NCBI RefSeq assembly: GCF_921293095.1
Contig: NC_060247.1
Coordinates: 55,091,111 to 55,155,110, forward strand
Direction: 5' to 3'
DNA from: Ischnura elegans
Lineage: Eukaryota; Arthropoda; Insecta; Odonata; Coenagrionidae
DNA: 64,000 nt
A program made the position numbers and the translations under genes. How positions within the stretch are numbered: the stretch's first letter is position 1; each line of letters begins with the position of its first letter. The notes below the pieces were generated by a model. The model made no database searches and was not told where the DNA came from. It saw only the letters and a program-made list of their open reading frames with translations. Positions 41,362 through 64,000 of this stretch are shown one piece after another.

Positions 41362-42091
41362 TATTCAGTACTAAATATATCAGTGTTAATAAATTTAATG
41401 CATTTAGACAATTGATTATTCATATAACTACATATTTGAGCTTCATTTTTAATATGATGTATTTTCTTCATAAGTATATGATGTAATTTTAATATATGGG
41501 TGACGGAAAGAGGAATTTAATAGTGTTCAAACTCCTTTTCCTAGAATTTACTAATGTTTATAGAAGCGCTAACTACTCCTAGTCACTAAGTGGCGTCAGA
41601 TTCGAAGTGTCTATAATTTTTAAATTAGTTTATTGATTTAACTTTTGCTATATTTTTAATCAAAAGAAAAGACTATGGTCGCAGTTAACCAATCAGGCAT
41701 ATAATATGTAATCGAATTTTTCCATTTCACGTAATCTCTCTAAGTATAAATATACTCTGATGTCCTCACATGCTATTCTATCCCTTCCACAAACTGCACC
41801 TCCTTATCTATAAATTAAGTTTGTTACGTGTCAGCCTGTCTGCATTTTGCGCAGTCCCACTTTAGGGGTCTATCTCAGTCGTATCAAGTGCTACAGGGAT
41901 GGAGTTTGGTCCATTCGACGCAGAATCTTGGCACGGACATTTTAGATTTGGTTCCAGCGCTGTAGATCGACCTTGCATAAAGTTATTGGAAAAAACGTAC
42001 AAAAATGGACCAAAATGGTCTGCCCACGAAACGGGAGACAAACAGTGGCAAGCCACAATTTATTCATGTCTCTTTAATGCTGTGGTTATCC
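41362..42091. repeat. 730-bp dispersed repeat, copy 1
   Basis: Matches 59503-60047 over nearly its full length, starting TATTCAGTACTAAATATATC. The second copy lacks about 150 bp corresponding to 41600-41755. Both copies keep a TATA box and an ATG at the same spacing. No terminal inverted repeats seen. Confidence 0.8.
41809..41835 (+). promoter_or_regulatory. conserved TATA box and possible initiator
   Basis: TATAAATTAAG begins at 41809 and GTGTCAGCC follows about 22 nt later. The arrangement is the same in the 59.8-kb copy, 90 nt before the ATG in copy 1. Spacing is slightly short for a standard TATA-initiator pair. Confidence 0.35.
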
Positions 42092-42300
42092 CATACAAAA
42101 TTCTAGCAACCAGCAACAGGTTCAACACTATGATTGGCAACGTCAACGACACGGCAACGACCGGTAGCGCAGCACAGTCGATGTCTGTAGATGTAGAACA
42201 GACTGGTTGGCCCTGTTACTCAACCTATGAAACAAACATGCCCTTGAGCTTCGAGAAACTTTTACACACCACCTTACACATTGGTATGAATGTGAAATAA
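41899..42300 (+). CDS. unrecognised 133-aa open frame in the repeat
   Basis: Begins MEFGPFDAESWHGHF and contains WSAHETGDKQW, VVIPYKILATSNRFNTMIG and GWPCYSTYETNMPLSF. The text looks protein-like, with no signal peptide or membrane helix. The same ATG and first 17 or so codons are recognisable in the 59.8-kb copy, which is broken. Its place just downstream of a TATA box, in a repeated unit, suggests a mobile or virus-derived gene. I cannot name a family. Confidence 0.35.
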   Translation: MEFGPFDAESWHGHFRFGSSAVDRPCIKLLEKTYKNGPKWSAHETGDKQWQATIYSCLFNAVVIPYKILATSNRFNTMIGNVNDTATTGSAAQSMSVDVEQTGWPCYSTYETNMPLSFEKLLHTTLHIGMNVK

Positions 42301-43262
42301 ACCTCAAATTTTTCCGAGTTTACAGAAGCAAAATTCACTTAATCTGCTACAGGAGAAATTTCCCTCAGAATTTATCTTTGAATTTCCGGACCAGTGAACA
42401 GAGCATATCGCAATCCAGGTTCTTAAATTCCCATGTTTATTTCTTCGCAATAACACGCGAATGTGCACTGCATCAATTTTCTAAGCTTTACAGCATCAGA
42501 GCTGCTTTAATGTGTGATTAGACTCTTAATGTGTGTCTTACATGGTAACCAATACAATATTAAGTATAACTTACGAAGCTCACGATCTCCTGTTATGACA
42601 TTATCTTATAAGGAAGTACTGGCAATATCTTCTAATATGAAATAATTGATACAGAGTAAAATGTAAATTCTTTCAGTAGGGACCAGAAGCTTGAACTCGA
42701 TGCTATACGCACAGGCTCAATACGCCTCAAAACTGGAGTCTTCATCGGGGATAAGGGGAGTTTATTGAATCAAATAAGGTAAATAAATTCTGCATAAGAT
42801 TGAAAGGTAAATTTAGGTTTATTTCCTTAATTGTTTTCAAAACAACGAAATTTTAAGAGAGCAGTACTTCAAAATGGTGTTAGCAATGGGCAATCACTTT
42901 TCTATCCTCACAAAAAAACTTCCTTTGTTATCTAGACCTCTAGGAGAAGGCAGTTCAATCTGAACGAAATTACGGCAGCATGTGAACACAATCCCCATGG
43001 GATGTTTTTCGTGGTTACCCTCTAACGAGATGCTAAAAGTGACAGCGTAGGACGAAGGATGTAAACTAACTAAGGCTCCGGATGATACACGCATATCATT
43101 GTCGACAAAGGCTGAGGCACGAACACATTCGAGGAAATACCGTCCTACATCTAGCGAATTGTCATGTGCATTCACGATTGCATGAAGAGGGGATATGGCT
43201 CACTAGCATCTTCACCAGACCCTACAGGATTCCCGAGAAACACCTCGTGTTATTCATACTCT
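42301..43262. other. intergenic, no supported gene
   Basis: An exon-like patch after 'attctttcag' at 42679 reads RSLNSMLYAQAQYASKLE before a stop. Overlapping open frames at 42894-43175 (minus) and 43082-43370 (plus) are unassigned. None is strong enough to call. Confidence 0.3.
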
Positions 43263-50430: not shown

Positions 50431-50839
50431 TCATCGCTTACCTCATGTTTAATACTACTGTGTATTTCGACGATTTGACCGTAGGAATTAATTTAATTCC
50501 TCCGTCTAGCCCTGAATTGACCAAATATTTCTCTCTGTACCATTTCAAGAACCTAATCAGTGACTTGTCGATTACATAATGCACTATCTTTGTACAAACG
50601 GTCTTATTTTAGCAGCGCTATCAAGATAGCTGTCCTGATTATCGGATTCAAACCGAAGTGATAAATACGATCTTAACATCTTCTACAATAGAGAACAAAA
50701 TGAACGAAAAAAACCTTTGTGGGACATCCCGATATCCCTGCATATTGAGCAATTCTTCCTTCGATAGAGGATACATAAGTCTCAACTCGAGGCAGATCAA
50801 TCCACTGTTCGATCATCCGTGAGTGAGGAACGGGTGATC
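50431..50839 (+). promoter_or_regulatory. upstream region of the carboxypeptidase gene
   Basis: About 400 bp before the start codon, presumably holding the promoter and 5' UTR. I see only a weak TATA-like ATACATAA at 50769 and no convincing initiator. Confidence 0.3.
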
Positions 50840-51157
50840 ATGAAGGGAACTTTCATCATTCTCGCGGCACTTTGCCTTGCAGCGGTCTCCGGTGGTTTGA
50901 TCAAGAAGAAAAAGAGCGATCTTTGGCTCCAGACGCTTCCAAAATGGGAGCCTCTCCCGGTGGTGGGAGATGTCGGCGAAAGACTGATCCTGACGCCCCT
51001 GATCCAACAGGGAAAAATTGACGAGGCAAGGGCAATGGCGGAAGTCAAGGATCTGTCGGACGATCCCGAGGTGCAGGCGATCAAGTCTTACTCAGGCTAC
51101 TTCACAGTCAATGAGACGTACAATTCCAACCTGTTCTTCTGGTTCTTCCCAGCAATG
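50840..51157 (+). CDS. carboxypeptidase exon 1 (residues 1-106)
   Basis: Signal peptide, basic pro-region (KKKK), LILTPLI and the start of the catalytic domain (SYSGYFTVNETYNSNLFFWF). Donor ATG|GTGAGT, phase 0. Confidence 0.95.
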
Positions 51158-54100
51158 GTGAGTGAATTCATCCTTTTCTCCTCCTTATTCATTCACCATA
51201 CTCGCCCAATTTTGAAGATAATTCAGTCTCTTAAAAAAAATTATAATCTGTGAAAGTAAGCATGTTCAAATTAAATGTTAAATGAAATAAGGGTGAAAAT
51301 GTGAGCTCCGTGCGGTCCATTCACGCTTCTGAGCTATTTAGTTCGTGGTACAGTCGGTTTATCGCAATTTTAATGATACATCGAGTGGGTGGCGTTAGTC
51401 CAAGCTTTGCCCACTCCTGGACACCACGACACCCTTTCGTACCATTATTTCCACTTGAGTTATGTATATCTGATGTTAAACGGAGAGATAGTGTGGAATA
51501 AACTCTGCACATATTCTCAAACGAGACGATTATCAATGAAACACGCCAACTGTTTTGTAACTTACACAAGATGACTTCAGTGTTTTTAGGGAACCACTAT
51601 CTGTAGACAAACCATGGCATTATTCTGGAAAATGCAAAAGTTTGGGAACTGAAGATCACTTCGGAGGAGTGGGAGGAGGTCTGCACCCAGATCCACGGTT
51701 TACTTGCCCTTTCTCTTTATTACAAACCTAAATCTGCCTCTGAACTCCCACATCATTTCCTCTACGAGTTCAACCAGACAGCTTTTTGTGATAAAAAAGG
51801 GATAAAAATTAATGCTTATTTTTTTAAATATCGAAGGTGCTAAAGTTATTTCTAAATGTAAACATGAGAACTCCAACTCTGGGAAGACGTAAATATTAAT
51901 GAGTTAGACTTCGAAATTTCCCGTCAAACTTGTGCATACCTAGTAAATCTGCATAGCATAGATGAACGAAAATATTTTTTTTTTAAACTTGCTATTGACT
52001 CATGATAGTTGCATAGGATACTTTATGACTACTTTTGGGTGTTAAGACCTGGATCTACAAGTATTATGTCTGAATTGCAAAATACGTGAAGCAATTGGTA
52101 CTCGTATTATGCAAAACAGAAGAAGAACCTTCCTTGGGCAAGTTGAAATTTCGAGATAAATGATATGGCTCTCTTGCATTTCATTAGTTCCGCATGTAAG
52201 CGTTTGACATGGTACAGACAGCGAGCCAATACTCATTACCAAATTTGGAAAGTGCACATGAAATACATAGCATATAACGAGAAAATACGTATACGTGTGA
52301 CAATATTTTCACTACTGCCAGCATTAAGCTGCCATGTCGCTTTCGCCAAGGCCATTTTCAAATCACATGATTCGGGAATGCTTTGAGGCAACAGGCGTCA
52401 TATGGCACCATAGAAAACATGCAATAACATATCCCCATTAACGCTTTCCATTGTTTGTTGGTTTCCCCATCAACAATGCGTGCAGCAACTAGGATTTATT
52501 TGCAGGAGTTGACCTGCGGCTGAGATAATTGGCGTTTACGGGAAGGACGAGTTAAAATGTTAGTGCGAAGGTACACGAGAACGCGAAATGAATTTTGCAC
52601 ATGGGGAAAAAATCGATACGGGAAAAACCTTGGTCACGTGACGAATCTGATAGGTCTGGGAAGCTGATTAAGACGATAGCATTGGTTTTCATGCTGATCA
52701 TTTCAGGCGTTCGTTATCATATCGTTAGTTTCGATAAAAATTTCATTAAACTCAGAAATAAAAGATAATTACAGGATTTAAATAACATATATTTGCAAGC
52801 ACATTTCCACTATGCATTATTACGGGAAATGAAAACTTTTCTGTTTCTATTTCCTATAACATTACTTAAGTTGGGTTTTCAATGTCGGTCTCGGCTTTGT
52901 GTTTCTTCATGCGGGCTATTGATTAAATTTACTCTGAGATCGGGAATGGTGGAGGGAAACTCAGGGTCGTCAAAAACCCTGCTCTTTACAAAAGGCTCCC
53001 AAGGGACTATGACTTTTAACTCCATCCGACCGACAAAATGAAATACTTGAAGAGTCTACCACAAAGTTCTCACGCAGGGATCAGACAATTCCCGAAAAAT
53101 ATATACCACCGCTGGTATTTGAGCCCATGTCCAAAGAGATCTTGGCCAGCAGTCAGGCTAATAGTATCACTCAAACGTGATCTTCACGAGTATCTAAATA
53201 GTGGTTATTATAAGATATAGATTCGAATTCTAGCCCATTCGTACATTTATTTCATGGAATAATCCAATATTGTTACCAGTTAGAAAGTTTTGCTGTCAAT
53301 TTTCAACTAAAATGAAATACGAAGAAGACAATTTAGACAGTATTTTAGTTAATTTTTAGTAGACATGTATAAGTTGATCGCAATAGATAATTCATCCCCC
53401 ATGAATCCCATTATCATTTCAGAACAATCCTGAGGAAGCCCCACTGCTCCTTTGGCTTCAAGGTGGACCTGGTGTGTCGTCCCTATTCGCGCTTTTCACA
53501 GAGAATGGTCCTTATTTCATCAACCCCGATAACAAGACCCTTTCTCTCAACCCTTATTCGTGGACCACGAATCACTCTGTCATCTTCTTTGATCAGCCGG
53601 TGGGCACAGGTAAATTGCTCACTCTGACAGCTCCAGAGAAAATGTCTAGTTAACCATCTTTAAGATACGACGGATAATATGATAAACGACTCTAAAATTT
53701 ATAAAGACAGCAAAATATGAAGCTTAAGATTGGTGTTTTCCTAACAGTAACCGTTCTAACCTAATCACCGTGCCCCATATGTACTAGACTGCTGGTCATT
53801 TTCACTTCATTTGAGTTATTTCTTAACAGCCAACCTTAGATGCAAGGAATAGGTGTTTGGTATGATTGTTTGGTATTGTTGTTTGGTATCAAGATCAATT
53901 CTGCTTTTGTTTTTTTAAATTTTGTATTTAGAGGTTCACCACTCTGTTGAAAAATGGCAAACTACGATTTTTCATAAGATGGATGGCATAATATTACGCT
54001 CGTAACACGCAATTTGGTAAAAACTTAAATTCTTAAAAATAATTATAAATGTTTCCAATAGTATTAAAATTAAACTCATGAGAAAAATTAATTTTAGAAT

Positions 54101-57100: not shown

Positions 57101-59098
57101 CACTTCGAAACGTTCCTCGACGAGGTAAATAACATAAAAAAACCGGAGCTGGGCAGAATCACAGTATACAAAAAAAGATAAAAAACACTCACAGTACTGA
57201 ATTTTCGGTGGCGCATTACCACCTTCCTCAGAGTTAGTGGTTATTTTATGTACATAATTTAAGAAATATATTACCTACCGCCAATTATAATTGAATATAA
57301 AGGCACCAGAATTGATTTTTCGGTTGGCAAGGCGAATCATCATGGGGAAGGAGACTTTATAACCTATTTCTATTGGATTTAGTAATTACATAAAATTTAA
57401 AATTTCATTCCAGACAATTAGCAGTTCCACCCAATCTCATACGTTTAATATTTAGTTTAGAATCATAATCATCGCTTATTAGTAGCAGCTATTTACACAA
57501 AAGATGAGGCACCAAACGCTGAATTATTTGATCTTCCCTCTATGTTAGGTAATGATGATAACATCTTCTTCTTCTTCTTACTCAAATAGGATTAGCTATT
57601 GGAAATGGCATGACGGATCCCGAGTCAATGATTCCTGAATATGCTTCTCTTATATACGAGGTGGGCCTCATAGATGACAATGGAAGAGGAGTGATTCAAA
57701 ACTACCAAGACCTTTGTGTTCAAGCCATTAGGAGTGGAAATTGGATGAACGCCTTTGAGGTGAGCTATAATGACATGTATAAGCGAGGTATCAACCCCAG
57801 TGACATTTCTTCTCATTAGCTATCGATTTTCGGTAACATGAAAATATTCCTAAGAATAAAATCAATTTTGTCTGTATTAAAATCCTTAAAAATGACAATA
57901 AGCGCGAATATATTTATCTATACGGGCGGGAAATCACAAAATATTTGGCCTTAAACATATTTCTTCCGAGAAAACAAGGCTTTTGCTTCGCATTTTCCCA
58001 CAAAATATTTTTCAAACTATTTTGTCATATTTCATGCACCATTTTATTATTCTCGGTATGCTCTATTCCGTCGTTTTTATTCGTATTCAAAGTAATTTTC
58101 TAAATATTTACGCATATGTACTTTTGTGAAATTGATCACCCTTCTACTGTAATAACTCTCAGTACAACTATTATTAACGATAAGAAATGAAGCCGCTCAG
58201 ATACATTAACCAATAAAATACCACAATACAATGCTTGTGGAATTTTCTAATTCAATCTGCCGTAAATATAACGATAATTAGTATTTATGAAGTTTCAGGC
58301 ACGTCTTAAAAGCGACAGCTATTCACAAAAAAGCGTAAATATCCGGAATCTCAAACGGTTTGTGTATTAAGGTTATTGGTCTAGAAGGCATGTCTTTTTT
58401 GCATCGCGAATAATTAAAAAAAGCCTTTTAATAATTTCTCCAACCACATGAATGAAAAATCTCCGACAAAATCGCTGAATCGTAAAATTTCATTCTCGCC
58501 ACTCTGCCACAAAATGTTCACAAACACATAATATTAACAATTTTTTAATTTGGTATGCATCTGATTTCAGTATTGGAGTACAATCCTCGGTAACTTCATG
58601 GAACTCAGTGGATACTCTTTCATCTACAACATTTACTACGTAGACGACCCTGCGACGGGCGGCAGCGTACCCGACTTCGTCCAGAGCGAGAGGACGAGGA
58701 AAGCCATGCACGTTGGAGACACGATGTACTCATACGTCGGCACCGTTTACAGCAAACTGGAACCGGATATCATGAAGTCAGTAAGGCCTTGGGTCGAGGA
58801 GCTCCTGAATTCCGGTCTCAGGATAATGTTTTACAACGGAAACTTCGACGTGAGCGTCGGGTACCCTCTCTCGAGGGGAATGTTCAAGAAACTCCAATTC
58901 GATGGAGCTGACGAATATAGGATAGCTAAGCGAGAGATGTGGCGCGTTGGAGGGGAACTGGCCGGTTATTACAAGAAAGGTGGGACCTTCATGGAGGTTA
59001 TGGTCAGGAACGCGGGGCACATGGTGCCAACGGACCAGCCAGTTTGGGCTCTGGACCTCATAACCCGTTTCTCAAGGAACTTAGACCTATCAAGCTGA
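50840..59098 (+). CDS. secreted serine carboxypeptidase (S10, vitellogenic carboxypeptidase/CPVL type), six exons
   Basis: Joining 50840-51157, 53423-53609, 56313-56459, 56560-56634, 57590-57759 and 58571-59098 gives an open frame of 474 residues, the normal length for CPVL-type enzymes. A signal peptide (KGTFIILAALCLAAVSGG) starts it. The S10 substrate-binding motif LLWLQGGPGVSSLF and the nucleophile box GESYAG (Ser 215), Asp 392 (NGNFDV) and His 449 (GHMVPTDQP) form the catalytic triad. Such enzymes remove C-terminal residues from peptides at acidic pH, in lysosome-like compartments, yolk bodies or secretions. Nothing is missing, so the gene is probably functional. ATG 50840 is preferred because the leader follows it directly. 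Confidence 0.95.
51158..53422. other. carboxypeptidase intron 1, nothing recognised
   Basis: Intron without identifiable element; overlapping short frames at 51301-51574 are on both strands and unsupported. Confidence 0.5.
53423..53609 (+). CDS. carboxypeptidase exon 2 (residues 107-169)
   Basis: Encodes NNPEEAPLLLWLQGGPG, the oxyanion/substrate-binding segment, then TENGPY, LNPYSWTTNHSV and FFDQPVGTG. Acceptor tcatttcag, donor G|GTAAAT. Confidence 0.95.
53610..56312. other. carboxypeptidase intron 2, nothing recognised
   Basis: 2.7 kb of AT-rich intron with no transposon termini or exon-like frames. Confidence 0.5.
56313..56459 (+). CDS. carboxypeptidase exon 3 (residues 169-218)
   Basis: GFSFTDSDDGY, then FFTMFPEF and the nucleophile motif VTGESYAG. 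Acceptor ttgaaatag, donor G|GTAAAT. Confidence 0.95.
56560..56634 (+). CDS. carboxypeptidase exon 4 (residues 218-243)
   Basis: A 75-nt exon encoding GKYIPAVGYAIY and IKINLQ, the family's 'GKYvPa.a..I' segment. It lies 100 bp after exon 3; both flanking junctions are phase 1. Confidence 0.93.
56635..57589. other. carboxypeptidase intron 4, unassigned GC-richer patch
   Basis: A GC-richer patch at about 56860-57000 differs from the rest and may be a transposon fragment. I could not classify it. Confidence 0.35.
57590..57759 (+). CDS. carboxypeptidase exon 5 (residues 243-299)
   Basis: GLAIGNGMTDPESM, then YASLIYEVGLID, typical of the family after the nucleophile domain. Acceptor ctcaaatag, donor GAG|GTGAGC, phase 0. 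Confidence 0.95.
57760..58570. other. carboxypeptidase intron 5, nothing recognised
   Basis: AT-rich, no features seen. Confidence 0.5.
58571..59098 (+). CDS. carboxypeptidase exon 6 (residues 300-474)
   Basis: Largest and most GC-rich exon. It holds the cap-domain end, VRPWVEELLNSGLRIMFY, Asp 392 and the His 449 loop, ending in TGA. Acceptor ctgatttcag. Confidence 0.95.
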   Translation, partial: YWSTILGNFMELSGYSFIYNIYYVDDPATGGSVPDFVQSERTRKAMHVGDTMYSYVGTVYSKLEPDIMKSVRPWVEELLNSGLRIMFYNGNFDVSVGYPLSRGMFKKLQFDGADEYRIAKREMWRVGGELAGYYKKGGTFMEVMVRNAGHMVPTDQPVWALDLITRFSRNLDLSS

Positions 59099-59502: not shown

Positions 59503-60047
59503 TTATTCAGTACTAAATATATCAGTGTTCATAAATATAATGCATGTAGACTATTGATTATTCAAATACCTACATATTTGAGCTTCATTTTTAATATGAT
59601 ATATTTTATCTATACGAATATGATGTAATTTTAATATATGGGTGACGGAAAGAGGAATTTAATAGCGTTCTAGAATTGCCTAGAATTTGCTAATATTTAT
59701 GGAAGCGCTAACTACTCCTAGTCACTTAGTGGTGCCACATTTGAAATCACATGCTATTCTGTCCCTCCCACAAACTTCACCTCCCTTATCTATAAATTAA
59801 GTTTGTTTCGTGTCAGCCTGTCTTCATTTTGACAGTCACACCTTAAGGTCAAGTGCTAAAGGGATGGAGTTTGGTCCATTCGACGTAGAATCTTTACACG
59901 GATATTTTAGACTTGGTCCCACCTCTGTAGCTTGACCTAGCGTAAATTTTCTAGCAAAAAACTTAAAGAAATGGACCAAAAAAGCCAGCCCACTAAACGG
60001 GAGAAAGCCACAATTTATTCCTGTCTCCCCACTGCAGTGGTTATCCC
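59503..60047 (+). pseudogene. dispersed repeat, copy 2, with broken open frame
   Basis: Homologous to 41362-42091. The TATA box and the ATG (59864) are kept, but the frame meets TGA at 59933-59935, and later indels break it further. The copy ends at 60048, exactly where the retrotransposon LTR begins, in the middle of sequence that continues in copy 1. Confidence 0.75.
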
Positions 60048-60048
60048 T

Positions 60049-60256
60049 TGTAACGCCGTCATATTTGTGTTTATTTACTTGATGTTATTGATAAAATTGT
60101 TGCTATATTTGTGTTTATTTACTTGATGTTATTGATAAAATTGTTGCTACGAGGAGGTTGTTAGTAGTGGTTGTTGACTGTAAGTAAAGGAGAGATTGTG
60201 TGGCGTTAAAAAGATATATGAAATAAAAGAGCGATATTAGCAAAGGTGGCGTTACA
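60049..60256 (+). repeat. 5' LTR (208 bp)
   Basis: Begins TGTAACGCC and ends GGCGTTACA, a perfect 9-bp inverted terminal repeat with TG..CA ends. AATAAA occurs at about 60221. Two perfect 44-bp tandem copies lie at 60061-60148. The boundary matches the breakpoint in the host repeat. The primer-binding site should start just after 60256, but I could not match it to a tRNA. Confidence 0.8.
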
Positions 60257-60340
60257 GACATTTAATTGGTGGCTTAACGGTGGGATACGACGTAACTGGT
60301 GTTTCGGCGACTCGGTATTAGAAGTCTCCTGAAGAAAAAA

Positions 60341-60467
60341 CCGGAACGGTGGAAGGAGATATACTTCGGCTGCAGAGAAGGAAAACCGGAACGGTGGAAG
60401 GAGATATACTTCGGCTGCAGGGAAGGAAAAACCGGAACGGTGGAAGGAGATATTCTTCGGCTGCAGG
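60341..60467 (+). repeat. leader tandem repeat, 45-46 bp x 3
   Basis: Three copies of a unit starting CCGGAACGGTGGAAGGAGAT lie between the LTR and gag. They are non-coding here, purine-rich and almost identical. Confidence 0.85.
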
Positions 60468-60622
60468 GATTTTAAAAAAATATAAAAAAAGAAGAGTCAA
60501 GACTGAAGTAACCACGCAGAATTTCAGAGGTAAGTGCCTGGGTTGGCAGCTTGTTTTATCTCAGTGACGAAAAAAAAAAATTTTTTTCGGGCGTAGTGCT
60601 AGTCAGATCTTGAAATATTACG

Positions 60623-62362
60623 ATGAGCTATTTAGCTCGATATTTAAAGAAAGATTTGTTGTTGTTGGCGGAAGAGTTGGGAGAAACAGTTCCCGAAGAT
60701 GCAAAGATTTTTTCGATAAAAAAATTGATAACTAATAGCTGCAATTATGAAGAAGAATTCTGTAAAGAATGGCTTCAATTTCGAGAAAGATTGCGCAAAG
60801 AAGAAATTGAAGAGCGGGAACGGTTACGAAAAGAAGAAATTGAAGAGCGGGAACGGTTACGAAAAGAAGAAATTGAAGAGCGGGAACGGTTACGAAAAGA
60901 AGAAATTGAAGAGCGGGAACGGTTACGAAAAGAAGAAATTGAAGAAAGAAGACGAAGGGAGGAGACGCAGTTTGAGTTAGAAAGGCTAAAAATTCAAAAT
61001 AATGGACTACGCGATGGTGTGTCAGATCAAAACATGCCAGTTAGACCAAAGTTTAAATTATCAGATGTCATGCCATGCTTTGACTCCAAGGAAAATGACA
61101 TTAGTCTGTATTTGGTCACTTTCGAAAGGCAGGCAAAAAGGGCGCAAGTTCCCGTAGAGGACTGGGTTGTGCATCTCATAGGGCTTATGCCGCGTGACAT
61201 TGCGGAATTAATTGCCAGGGAACCAGAAGAAGCAGCGAACAATTTTGATTACGTAAAAACACTGTTGCTGGAGAGGTTCAAGTTAAGTTCAGAAAAATTT
61301 AGACAACTATTTTTCAACAATTTGAAGACAGCTGAAACATCGTGGAAGGAATTTACGTATAAGTTGAGGAATTATTGGAATGGTTGGATGTCTGGTTTGG
61401 GAATAAAGACATTCGAGCAACTTAGTGATTTAATGGTGACGGAACAAATAAAAAGGAAGGTTCCAGCAGAAGTGAGAGACCATTTCCTTGATAAATGGTC
61501 TTCGTTTAAAGACGCTGATATTTTGGCAAAGAAGCTGGATGATTATGCTAACGTACGTGAATTATTCAGCAGGAAGACAATTATAAAAGATCAGAAAGAA
61601 AAGTTTAAGTATAGTGAGAACCGCTGGTTTCCCCGACAGAAAGATAATTGGAATAGAGAAGATAACTCACCGAATATCAAAGAATACTCCAAAGAAATTG
61701 AAAATGCTTTTGAACGAAGAGCTCTTCGTAAGTGTTATATCTGTCGGTCGACTGATCACCTAAAAGCTGAATGCCCTAAGCTAAGGCCCCCCACGCAGAG
61801 AACGAAAGAGGTGGTGGGACGCGTAATGACATTCGAAAGTGATGAGTTAATGAAAGATTTTATATCTGAAGGTTTGGTAAATGGATACAAAATGCCGATT
61901 TTACGAGATACTGGCTCGTCAATAGACATCATATCTCAAGATTTTGTAGCCCCGGAAATGCTGACTGGCGAGACAATATGTGTAATGACTCCTTTTTCCC
62001 AGAACCCTATTACACTTCCCCTGGCGGAAGTCGAACTAGTAGGTAAATTTGGACGCGTGTTTGGGAAGGCAGCTGTAGTCAGACGCGAGCTGGATCGCGG
62101 CATATATTTGCTGGGAAACCAAACGGCAAAGCTTGTAGAAGAGGCAAGGAAGCAAATGCCAGAGCCAGAGTGGGTGTGTGCGGTTCAGACCAGGGCAATG
62201 AAAAGACGTGAAGAGAGAGAGAAAGATGAGCAGGAAATTGCACTTCAGGAATCCATGGAATCCATTATTGAAGAAAATGGCATAGAAGAGAACATACAAA
62301 CAAGAGTAGAAGAAAAAAAGGACAAGCTATTCCCGAAATATCCATATCGCGCGAAGAATTAG
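60623..62362 (+). CDS. retrotransposon Gag-protease (579 aa)
   Basis: An N-terminal helical region is followed by a charged coiled coil made of five in-frame 11-residue repeats (RLRKEEIEERE, about residues 55-110). A capsid-like domain (about 145-315) carries LMPRDIAELIARE and the MVTEQIKRKVPAEVRDHF segment, like SCAN-related retrotransposon capsids. A zinc knuckle C371-X2-C-X4-H-X4-C384 follows. The aspartic protease has D429-T-G-S-S. The frame stops at 62360-62362, 40 nt after a slippery heptamer. It forms particles and packages the RNA in related elements. The frame is intact. Confidence 0.9.
   Translation: MSYLARYLKKDLLLLAEELGETVPEDAKIFSIKKLITNSCNYEEEFCKEWLQFRERLRKEEIEERERLRKEEIEERERLRKEEIEERERLRKEEIEERERLRKEEIEERRRREETQFELERLKIQNNGLRDGVSDQNMPVRPKFKLSDVMPCFDSKENDISLYLVTFERQAKRAQVPVEDWVVHLIGLMPRDIAELIAREPEEAANNFDYVKTLLLERFKLSSEKFRQLFFNNLKTAETSWKEFTYKLRNYWNGWMSGLGIKTFEQLSDLMVTEQIKRKVPAEVRDHFLDKWSSFKDADILAKKLDDYANVRELFSRKTIIKDQKEKFKYSENRWFPRQKDNWNREDNSPNIKEYSKEIENAFERRALRKCYICRSTDHLKAECPKLRPPTQRTKEVVGRVMTFESDELMKDFISEGLVNGYKMPILRDTGSSIDIISQDFVAPEMLTGETICVMTPFSQNPITLPLAEVELVGKFGRVFGKAAVVRRELDRGIYLLGNQTAKLVEEARKQMPEPEWVCAVQTRAMKRREEREKDEQEIALQESMESIIEENGIEENIQTRVEEKKDKLFPKYPYRAKN
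60788..60950 (+). repeat. in-frame 33-bp minisatellite in gag
   Basis: Five 33-bp units (GGTTACGAAAAGAAGAAATT start, first unit variant) encode the 11-residue coiled-coil repeat. Period 33 keeps the frame, so copy number can change without breaking gag. Confidence 0.9.
62314..62320 (+). promoter_or_regulatory. -1 ribosomal frameshift site A AAA AAG
   Basis: In the gag-protease frame the codons GAA AAA AAG give the canonical slippery heptamer. A -1 slip at this point enters the frame of integrase and RT, which is open from here except for one stop. The gag stop follows 40 nt downstream. No obvious pseudoknot was worked out. Confidence 0.7.
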
Positions 62363-64000
62363 TACGAACTCAGAAGGAGGATAAAACTTTAAATGCATGT
62401 TTCCAGAAGGTAAAAGAGACAAATGTCGATTCAGAAGAAGGATATTTTTTAAATGAAGGATTGCTAATTCTGAGGAAGAAAGAACGATTAGAAGAATACA
62501 AGGAGCTCATTGTCGTACCGAATGATTTACGTGAGAGATTGCTATACTTATCTCATGAAGCAACGTTGTCGCATTTAGGCGTGAAAAAGACAAGAGATCA
62601 GCTGTTAAGGTACTTCTTTTGGCCTGGTTGTTGCTCAGATGTTGAAAAATATGTACGATCTTGTGATTCCTGTCAACGTGCAGGAAAAAGTGGAGAGCGG
62701 AGGAAAGCACCTCTGATGTTAGTCCCAGTGATTTCCGAGGTCATGAGTAAAATAAACATTGATGTTTGTGGACCATTGCCGGAGTCAAGAAAGGGAAATA
62801 AATATATACTCACTGCTCTTTGTTTGGCATCGAAATATCCTGATGCAATGCCAATGGCAGAGACAACGTCTCGAACCATAATTGATACCTTGCTAGAGCT
62901 ATTCAGCAGATGGGGTTTTCCTAAATAATTACAAACAGATCGAGGTTCTTATTTTGTGAGTACCTTGACTACAGAATTTTTTGAAAGAGCAGGTATTCAT
63001 GTTGTACATAGTTCTGTACAACATCCCCAGAGTAACCCCGTAGAAAGGTTTCACCGAACCTTGAAGAGAATACTACGCGCACTCTGCTTCGAGCGAGGAC
63101 AAGATTGGGAGAAATGTTTGCCTGGGGCACTCTTCGCAATCCGGACTGCCGTTTCTGAAACTAGTGGGTTTTCGCCCGCCGAATTAGTCCATGGAAGAAA
63201 CCTTCGGACGCCGTTGACGTTAGTCTATGAGTCCTGGATGAGACCAGAAGAACAAGAAACTCCTTCAGCTGAATACGTACTAAATCTAATAAATCGACTG
63301 AAGAAATGTCAAGAAGTGGCATCGGAGAAAGAAGAAAACGAGCGAGTGAAAAGAAAAGGTTATTACGATCGAAAAGCCATCAGTAGATCCTTTGAACCGG
63401 GAGATATGGTCCTTGTGTTAAATTCTAACCGAATAAATAAGTTAGATGTCCATTGGATAGGACCCGGTGAAGCATTACGGAAGTTGTCCGATACAAACTA
63501 CATCGTAACTCTACCGGGAAAATGTGGTCGTGATGACAGGAGTAAAGTGTACCATATTAATATGCTTAAGAGATACTTTACCAGAGAAGGGGTAGTTAAT
63601 TATTTAAGCGCACTGGCTACTCAAGTGGCCCCTGATTTGGAGATAGAAATCCCAGAGATTTCCGGGAAGGAACAATATGAAAACTGGCCCGAAAGCGCAA
63701 ATCTATCCAAAGAGCTAACGGAAACACAAGCAAGTAACTTGAAAAATCTTTTGAAGACATTCAAGGACATGTTCTCTGTAAAATCAGGATTAACTCATCT
63801 GGTAACCCATGACATCGAGTTGATTGACAAAAATCCAATACAACAAAGGCCGTACAGGATGTCGCCAAGGCAAAAAGATATCCTTGAAACAGAGATAAAG
63901 GCGATGTTGGAAGGAGGCATTATTGAAGAAGGTGAATCAGAGTTTACTTCTCCTATGATTTTAGTGGAAGTTCCCGGCCGAGATCCTCGGCCATGTATCG
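62321..64000 (+). CDS. retrotransposon pol: integrase then reverse transcriptase, one in-frame stop, runs off the window
   Basis: After the shift, a linker (EELVRTQKEDKTLNACF) leads to the H2C2 zinc domain (His codons 62554 and 62572, Cys codons 62662 and 62671). The integrase core has Asp at 62761 and 62938 and Glu at 63043, then a GPY/F-like C-terminal module (HWIGPGEALRKLSDTNYIV) and the N-terminal fingers of a Ty3/gypsy RT (QQRPYRMSPRQ, then FTSPMILVEVPG). A TAA at 62926-62928, four codons before the second Asp, breaks the frame. The Asp-Glu spacing has 34 residues between, one less than usual. This copy is probably inactive, although a single stop could be recent. Confidence 0.85.

What the first reader, a model, noticed from the sequence alone, without database searches (positions are those of the whole stretch)
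60623..64000. Ty3/gypsy-type retrotransposon with copia-like domain order (integrase before reverse transcriptase) in an arthropod
In one continuous frame the H2C2-DDE integrase and its GPY/F-like module are followed by a linker and then the first part of a gypsy-type RT. No LTR, PBS or polypurine tract lies between them, so this is not two elements side by side. This is the order described for Gmr1-like elements, reported (as far as I know) from deuterostomes. The gag also carries a SCAN-like capsid and a charged coiled coil. An arthropod member would widen that group's range.
Basis: partly seen in the sequence, partly recalled or inferred. Interest (0 to 1): 0.85.

Follow-up and report, generated by a model that had tools for sequence, protein, structure and literature searches.

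The report
Integrase-first insect retrotransposon that captures genes
This is a jumping gene of an insect with its enzymes in an unusual but already described order, and shortened sister copies in the same genome have swapped those enzymes for three different genes of the host.

Summary
The order is real. Read past the window, the element has near-identical LTRs (207/208), a 4-bp target duplication, gag with a sub-threshold SCAN match, protease, integrase, then RT (YLDD) and RNase H, and no second integrase. Corrections: an in-frame TAA (62926-62928) lies inside the integrase, and gag is in another frame than pol. Of 21 closely related RTs in this insect genome, 19 have an integrase in reach, all upstream; of 26 more distant ones, all have it downstream. 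Integrase-first copies form one clade by RT (100/100) and integrase (98/99). It is a Gmr1-like Ty3/gypsy family. Crustacean Gmr1-like elements are in print (PMC3587641), so the headline is a new member. The unexpected part is its copies: of 20 gag places, 2 keep pol and 17 carry a host gene beside gag-protease in pol's place (PABPN1, an RBM4/14-like RRM protein, a coiled-coil gene). The first two are spliced mRNAs; the donors are in the genome, about 95-100% alike; all four copies tested have near-identical LTRs and target duplications. A second gag family captured the same RRM mRNA independently.

The parts
60045..60048 (.). target site duplication CCCT (5' copy)
   Evidence: CCCT also follows the 3' LTR; a related unoccupied repeat copy near window 42090 reads through, with CCCA
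60049..60256 (+). 5' LTR, 208 bp, TGTAACGCC...GGCGTTACA, with a 44-bp duplication (60061-60149)
   Evidence: 207/208 identical to the 3' LTR at L009 2319-2526; tandem repeat
60267..60284 (+). putative primer binding site, 10 bases after the LTR; primer tRNA not identified
   Evidence: position and leading TGG only; same in two D1a copies, different in one D2 and one D3 copy
60331..60469 (+). leader, three copies of a 45-46 bp repeat
60623..62362 (+). gag-protease ORF, 579 aa
60797..60945 (+). charged coiled coil made of 4.5 exact 33-bp repeats; repeat number differs between copies
61289..61534 (+). SCAN-like part of the capsid, below Pfam cut-off
   Evidence: PF02023 24.8 bits in the genome search, 23.9 bits, E 3.7e-5, on the piece
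61727..61780 (+). CCHC zinc knuckle
   Evidence: PF00098 E 9e-4, 19.7 bits, cut-off 20.8
61862..62005 (+). protease region with DTGSS motif
   Evidence: PF08284 weak, E 0.13; motif read by eye
62272..62928 (+). first open stretch of pol, in another frame than gag; integrase N-terminal half
62314..62320 (+). A AAA AAG heptamer in the gag/pol overlap, a possible slippery site
   Evidence: read from sequence; no stable downstream structure, z 0.49; the two pol-bearing copies disagree on whether gag and pol share a frame
62515..62685 (+). integrase H2C2 zinc-binding domain
   Evidence: PF17921 E 2.3e-19
62746..63027 (+). integrase DDE core, interrupted by the stop
   Evidence: PF00665 pieces, below cut-off; 34 residues between second D and E
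62926..62928 (+). in-frame TAA inside the integrase core
63460..63573 (+). integrase C-terminal SH3/GPY-like module
   Evidence: PF22938 E 2e-5 to 6e-5, 23.5-24.9 bits, cut-off 27
63802..64000 (+). start of reverse transcriptase; RT and RNase H run on to window-equivalent 65157, 3' LTR 65208-65415
   Evidence: Ty3 RT alignment starts here; PF00078, PF17917, PF17919

Best explanation
A Ty3/gypsy LTR retrotransposon of the integrase-first (Gmr1-like) kind in an insect, order LTR-gag-PR-IN-RT-RNaseH-LTR. Shown: the full anatomy with one stop in this copy's integrase; that integrase-first copies in this genome form one clade by both RT and IN, with a Ty3-type integrase; that most copies of the family are pol-less derivatives in which a host gene stands, in frame where read, after gag-protease; and that four such copies tested were inserted with LTRs and target duplications. 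Inferred: the order came from one rearrangement inside Ty3/gypsy; the life cycle is the usual copy-out through a particle; host mRNAs are packaged by chance; reverse transcriptase jumps from element RNA to a host mRNA near the RNase H end (short shared words at 2 of 3 such junctions) and back into gag-protease; the chimaeras are then moved by Pol supplied in trans.
For: Anatomy. Order: 18 of 21 close RT rows paired with an upstream IN, one more, two without an IN in reach; 25 of 26 distant rows paired with a downstream IN, the last (one search used 47 of the 93 RT rows and 57 of the 150 IN rows; both lists are capped). Trees: integrase-first rows separated from all conventional rows and Ty3 with 100/100 (RT, 15 rows) and 98.1/99 (IN, 17 rows). 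Spacing of second D to E: 34 in 14 of 22 integrase-first loci, 35 in 14 of 16 conventional ones, motif not found in the rest, no exception. Captures.
Against: No Gmr1 reference sequence was available, so membership of that clade rests on order, monophyly within this genome and a sub-threshold SCAN match. The branches that would place the integrase-first clade among conventional families are weak (69.6/37 RT, 54.2/31 IN). The only two pol-bearing copies seen are damaged, so the source of Pol is not shown. D1's right junction shows no shared word and D3's left junction about one base, so jumping at microhomology is not uniform. Jumping itself was not observed. For D2 the donor has no intron in the stretch concerned, so mRNA origin is undecided.
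Confidence: 0.86

Rival explanations
1. Two conventional gypsy elements side by side or nested, so that an integrase of one precedes the RT of the other.
For: Nested insertions occur here: the C10 copy is split by other DNA.
Against: One pair of LTRs with one target duplication encloses the whole; one 742-aa frame joins the IN C-terminus to RNase H; the same order recurs in other insertions, with 808-856 bases between the matched IN and RT parts in 13 of 18; no second IN after RNase H.
Confidence: 0.01
2. The upstream integrase was taken from a Ty1/copia element, giving a gypsy-copia hybrid.
For: Copia elements have this order.
Against: The integrase matches Ty3 and foamy-virus integrases in the PDB and the Integrase_H2C2 and p58_C models, and is 24-28% identical to Ty3 against 25-38% to this genome's gypsy integrases. 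No copia integrase was in the tree.
Confidence: 0.03
3. The gene-bearing copies arose at DNA level: a copy lost pol by deletion next to a host gene, spliced read-through transcripts were packaged, as proposed for some acutely transforming retroviruses (recalled); only the right junction is by recombination.
For: Left junctions show little microhomology in D3 (about one base); read-through plus splicing could also give intronless inserts.
Against: Left junctions lie inside exons without intron remnants, for donors on three chromosomes; no element sequence in the donor stretches read (7 loci, 15.6 kb in all).
Confidence: 0.25
4. The captured genes are neutral passengers; in-frame fusion and amplification are accidents.
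For: PABPN1 insert against host: dN/dS about 0.3 in three copies and 0.6 in one, on 3-6 synonymous and 3-6 non-synonymous changes; between D1a and D1b copies 0.5-1.2, which does not show constraint. Four copies stop early.
Against: Every left junction read, five forms in this family (D1a, D1b, D2 short, D2 long, D3; not all independent, D1a/b share a right junction) and one in the other family, keeps the gag frame; two of three donors encode RRM proteins and one of their mRNAs was taken twice.
Confidence: 0.5

Closest known systems
Gmr1-like Ty3/gypsy elements (cod Gmr1, Ciona, Sparus Saugg1, frogs, crustacean GyRex4/Gychoro2/GyMaja1/GyLiva4, annelid LGF3)
   Same: integrase upstream of RT; SCAN-type gag, reported for over half of frog Gmr elements (PMC4131045, passages), weakly present here
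   Different: host is an insect; no sequence comparison with them was possible; gene-bearing derivatives are not mentioned in the passages I read
Maize Bs1 and other plant LTR elements with captured genes (PMC13317346, PMC7264820, passages)
   Same: LTR element carrying pieces of several host genes, usually in the sense of gag and pol
   Different: Bs1 is a plant element said to hold segments of three genes; here three separate lineages of an animal element each carry one gene in place of pol, after gag-protease
Acutely transforming retroviruses (recalled) and crocodilian ERVs with KIT-ligand and nectin3 (PMC4299795, passages)
   Same: host mRNA taken up, usually at the cost of viral coding sequence, then multiplied as part of the element
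   Different: those are vertebrate retroviruses; here a Ty3/gypsy element in which no env was seen, pol is replaced, and the host protein continues the gag-protease frame
SCAN-zinc-finger genes of vertebrates (PMC3424704, passage)
   Same: Gmr1-type Gag part joined to a nucleic-acid-binding protein
   Different: there gag was domesticated in a host gene; here a host gene was taken by a mobile element

Membership tests
Ty3/gypsy LTR retrotransposons | Ty3-type RT-RNase H | tested here: met
   PDB Ty3 RT E 1e-75; PF00078, PF17917, PF17919
Ty3/gypsy LTR retrotransposons | LTRs, target duplication, polypurine tract | tested here: met
   207/208 LTR identity, CCCT both sides, AAGGGGGAAGAAGG just before the 3' LTR
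Ty3/gypsy LTR retrotransposons | primer binding site for a host tRNA | tested here: inconclusive
   TGG-start stretch 10 bases after the LTR, tRNA not identified; varies between lineages
Gmr1-like elements | integrase upstream of RT in one pol | tested here: met
   recurs in relatives
Gmr1-like elements | RT and IN cluster with Gmr1 reference elements | not testable with these tools
   no eukaryotic reference collection; scans of viral contigs and genome contigs returned no relative
Gmr1-like elements | integrase-first elements are one clade | tested here: met
   within this genome plus Ty3: 100/100 by RT, 98.1/99 by IN
Gmr1-like elements | SCAN-type gag (reported for over half of frog Gmr elements) | tested here: inconclusive
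   24.8 bits, cut-off 27, for this copy; 5 of 21 genome matches pass it, one about 1 kb upstream of the IN of the related element L049 and one about 1 kb upstream of an IN match on C9
Ty1/copia elements | copia-type RT and integrase models | tested here: not met
   no such Pfam match at E up to 1; best are RVT_1 and Integrase_H2C2/p58_C
retrotransposon with transduced host genes | insert matches a spliced host mRNA | tested here: met
   D1: four introns of PABPN1 absent; D3: four introns of the RRM gene absent; D2: donor colinear without introns, so undecided
retrotransposon with transduced host genes | chimaera moved as a unit | tested here: met
   4 of 17 gene-bearing copies checked: LTRs 208/208, 164/164, 202/203, 207/207, each with a 4-bp duplication

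The most novel reading that the evidence does not exclude
In this insect, two unrelated LTR families (one Gmr1-like with SCAN-type gag, one with SAP-domain gag) repeatedly turn into Gag-host-protein vehicles: pol is replaced by a spliced host mRNA, preferentially of RNA-binding proteins, in frame with Gag, and these fusions out-number their pol-bearing parent because the added RNA-binding domain helps the pol-less element (for example in RNA export, packaging or escape from silencing). This would be the retrotransposon counterpart of oncogene-capturing retroviruses.
Probability: 0.28. Interest if true: 0.82.

Novelty: new variant of a known kind. Interest (0 to 1): 0.62.

Why it matters
The order itself adds an insect to a clade already reported from crustaceans, annelids and deuterostomes. 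The gene-bearing copies matter more: they are young, three donors still sit in the genome at about 95-100% identity, junctions are readable nearly to the base, and one mRNA was taken twice by unrelated families. That makes the old question of how retroelements pick up host genes, and whether the added gene helps the element, testable in an animal outside the retroviruses.

Tried and rejected
Side-by-side elements, copia integrase: rejected, with no copia reference in the trees. Programmed -1 frameshift at A AAA AAG: left open; no stable downstream fold and the two pol-bearing copies disagree on whether gag and pol share a frame. Outside relatives: viral contigs and genome contigs gave none. 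Donor of D2: taken at first for one more copy, no Pfam family; recognised as the C4 gene only. One capture shared by L061 and L068: rejected, 2 shared changes against 7 and 33 private, and different left junctions; my joining of exons failed at one intron, and the counts come from columns present in all three rows. Insect reports of Gmr1: searches (listings; one search listed 40 of 91 papers, one search listed 20 of 28) and passages of 11 papers showed none for insects; two listed papers were false hits on a journal abbreviation. Gene capture by LTR elements in insects: searches (15 listed of 1294, 43, 863 and 125) showed no like case among those listed; PMC5408684 (rotifer elements with added ORFs) and PMC12440569 seen in the listing only. 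Emerson and Thomas on SCAN known only from a citation (not held). Tree rows: RT 15 and IN 17 kept of 39 candidate rows after length and 95% identity filters; support values drawn on the re-rooted tree were misplaced and were replaced. D-E spacing: one search gave 36 for L019 by joining two overlapping pieces, an artefact; one search repeats the count without joining. Structure prediction of the capsid: machine busy four times, not done. tRNA scan of the window found none.
Full report
WHAT WAS CLAIMED. A Ty3/gypsy-type element at 60623-64000 with integrase before reverse transcriptase in one frame, in an arthropod, resembling Gmr1 elements.

THE ELEMENT. The window is G000:C2:55091111-55155110 of an assembly of 1.72 Gb. 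I read 8 kb from just before the window's end (L009; window position = L009 position + 62889). The 5' LTR is 60049-60256 and the 3' LTR L009 2319-2526, 207 of 208 bases alike. CCCT stands on both sides, and a related repeat elsewhere in the window (about 41460-42483, 81-86% alike) shows the unoccupied site. A polypurine tract precedes the 3' LTR. Gag-protease is 60623-62362. Pol is open from 62272 in another frame, is cut by TAA at 62926-62928 and is then open for 742 aa to window-equivalent 65157. Pfam finds the integrase zinc domain, pieces of the DDE core and a C-terminal SH3/p58 module (the last two below cut-off), then RVT_1 and two RNase H models. The RT carries YLDD. Only 50 bases separate pol from the 3' LTR, so there is no second integrase. 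The order is gag-PR-IN-RT-RH.

HOST. Four matches to 7tm_6 over the cut-off support an insect; that this odorant receptor family is insect-specific is from my own knowledge. COX1 gave 43 matches; those I looked at in the table lie on large numbered contigs, and I did not name the species.

ORDER ACROSS THE GENOME. RT search: 93 matches, 92 of 3416 candidates scored; integrase search: 150 matches, 150 of 2417 scored. I paired 47 of the 93 with 57 of the 150. Of 21 RT rows at 56% identity or more, 18 had an integrase upstream and 3 none in reach; one of these three showed it, leaving two. Of 26 rows at 45% or less, 25 had it downstream and the last did. Eight further loci chosen for variety agreed: two integrase-first, six conventional. 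The 46 RT rows not paired are 43-45% rows and one fragment. At least three integrase-first families exist: this one; a group of 17 fetched loci with IN about 50% identical to it; and a third (L035, L048, L049).

TREES. With Ty3 as the outside row, integrase-first rows are split from all others with 100/100 for RT (15 rows) and 98.1/99 for integrase (17 rows). The branches that would say which conventional family is nearest are weak (69.6/37 for RT; 54.2/31 for IN, joining them with Ty3). The second D and the E of the integrase are 34 residues apart in 14 of 22 integrase-first loci and 35 in 14 of 16 conventional ones; in the rest the motif was not found. The simplest reading is one rearrangement within Ty3/gypsy.

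GAG. The SCAN model scores 24.8 bits or 23.9 on this copy, below 27. Five of 21 SCAN matches in the genome pass the cut-off; one lies about 1 kb upstream of the integrase of L049 and one about 1 kb upstream of another integrase match on C9. The link between SCAN and Gmr1 gag is in print (PMC3424704, PMC4131045, passages).

THE SISTER COPIES. A search with gag DNA gives 20 places, all candidates scored. Two keep pol: the window and a C10 copy split by other DNA. One is rearranged (C1:55105587). In the other 17 a host gene follows gag-protease where pol should be. For 12 I read a BLAST map of the copy or of its junctions; for 5 (C15, C11:86.8, C3:16.6, C11:3.98, C2:42.8) the assignment rests on coordinates. 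Where the right side was read, the RNase H tail and the LTR follow; for L007 it was not read.

D1, four copies: part of PABPN1. The insert's protein matches solved PABPN1 at E 3e-47. The host gene on C1 has five exons in the stretch concerned, and the four introns between them are absent from the insert; DNA identity per exon is 95-100%. Copies C11 and C1:164 (D1a) join at about 62226-62240, where element and donor look alike; C4:116 and C14 (D1b) join at 61986 with 63 bases more of PABPN1. All share the right junction, 65067. The C11 copy has an open 687-aa gag-protease-PABPN1 frame.

D2, twelve copies: a coiled-coil protein without Pfam family. The donor is an open gene on C4 with no element sequence in the 4.6 kb read, 97.9% alike over 1866 colinear bases. 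Junctions 62214 and 65061; one copy (L007) has a longer insert from 62220. At the right junction donor and element share AATCAAAAT.

D3, one copy (C8): an RRM protein nearest to RBM4B, RBM14 and RBM30 among solved structures (E 2.6e-16 to 5e-14), taken from its 5' untranslated region onward. The host gene on C11 has four introns that the insert lacks; identity 95.9-98.4% in the three longer exon matches. BLAST ends the left match at 62170-62173, but by eye the element ends near 62153. At the right junction donor and element share TCAGCCG; the insert has one difference in that word.

All left junctions read keep the gag frame: D1a, D1b, D2 short, D2 long (by my reading), D3. Some copies later acquired stops: L005, L007, L064 and L065 stop early. 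In the four copies whose two LTRs I fetched, LTR identity is 208/208, 164/164, 202/203 and 207/207, each with a 4-bp duplication, so these chimaeras moved as units and lately.

A SECOND FAMILY. Eleven further places apart from the donor match D3's protein at 77-91% over a long stretch. The one read in full (L068, C12) has a different gag, with SAP domain, continuing in frame into the same RRM protein, between terminal repeats of at least 110 bases, 99% alike; its pol was not looked for. It shares 2 changes from the host with D3 against 7 and 33 private ones, and its left junction lies upstream of D3's in the host's first exon. So this mRNA was most likely taken twice.

MECHANISM. Shown: intronless inserts (D1, D3), internal junctions, short shared words at two of three right junctions, frame kept, movement afterwards. 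Inferred: jumping of reverse transcriptase between co-packaged RNAs, and Pol in trans. Against a uniform rule: D1's right junction has no shared word, D3's left junction about one base. Against selection: dN/dS of the PABPN1 insert is 0.3-0.6 to the host on few changes and 0.5-1.2 between D1a and D1b copies. Why two of three donors are RNA-binding proteins is open; chance, packaging of abundant mRNAs, or benefit to the element are all possible.

PRIOR WORK. Crustacean Gmr1-like elements: PMC3587641; annelid: PMC8220671 and PMC8556966; order: PMC6238403, PMC2774666. Capture: maize Bs1 and plant surveys (PMC13317346, PMC7264820), crocodilian ERVs (PMC4299795). In all of these I read passages, not whole papers. 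My searches for an insect case listed none among the papers shown, which is weak evidence.

VERDICT. Order confirmed; 'first arthropod' not supported; new member of a known clade in an insect. With its gene-bearing derivatives the family is a new variant of a known kind.

Noticed in passing
C12:31326040 (L068) and ten similar places: An LTR family with SAP-domain gag carries the same host RRM gene in frame in the copy read, captured independently.
   Followed up: partly
window 60267-60284 and L070-L073: The putative primer binding site differs between the window/D1a, D2 and D3 copies, as if the primer tRNA changed.
   Followed up: no
window 60797-60945 and other copies: The 33-bp repeat of the gag coiled coil varies in number between copies.
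   Followed up: partly
window 41460-42483 and 59600-60048: The element sits inside an older repeat that has another copy in the same window, which serves as the unoccupied site.
   Followed up: yes
window 50768-51250 and 58565-59095: Pieces matching serine carboxypeptidase (Peptidase_S10) lie upstream of the element, the second well over the Pfam cut-off, the first below it.
   Followed up: partly
G000:C1:55103400-55105700 (L077): A copy in which inverted gag lies next to an LTR, possibly a self-insertion product.
   Followed up: no
genome: 43 matches to mitochondrial COX1 on numbered contigs, most with stops under the standard code, probably nuclear fragments of mitochondrial DNA.
   Followed up: no
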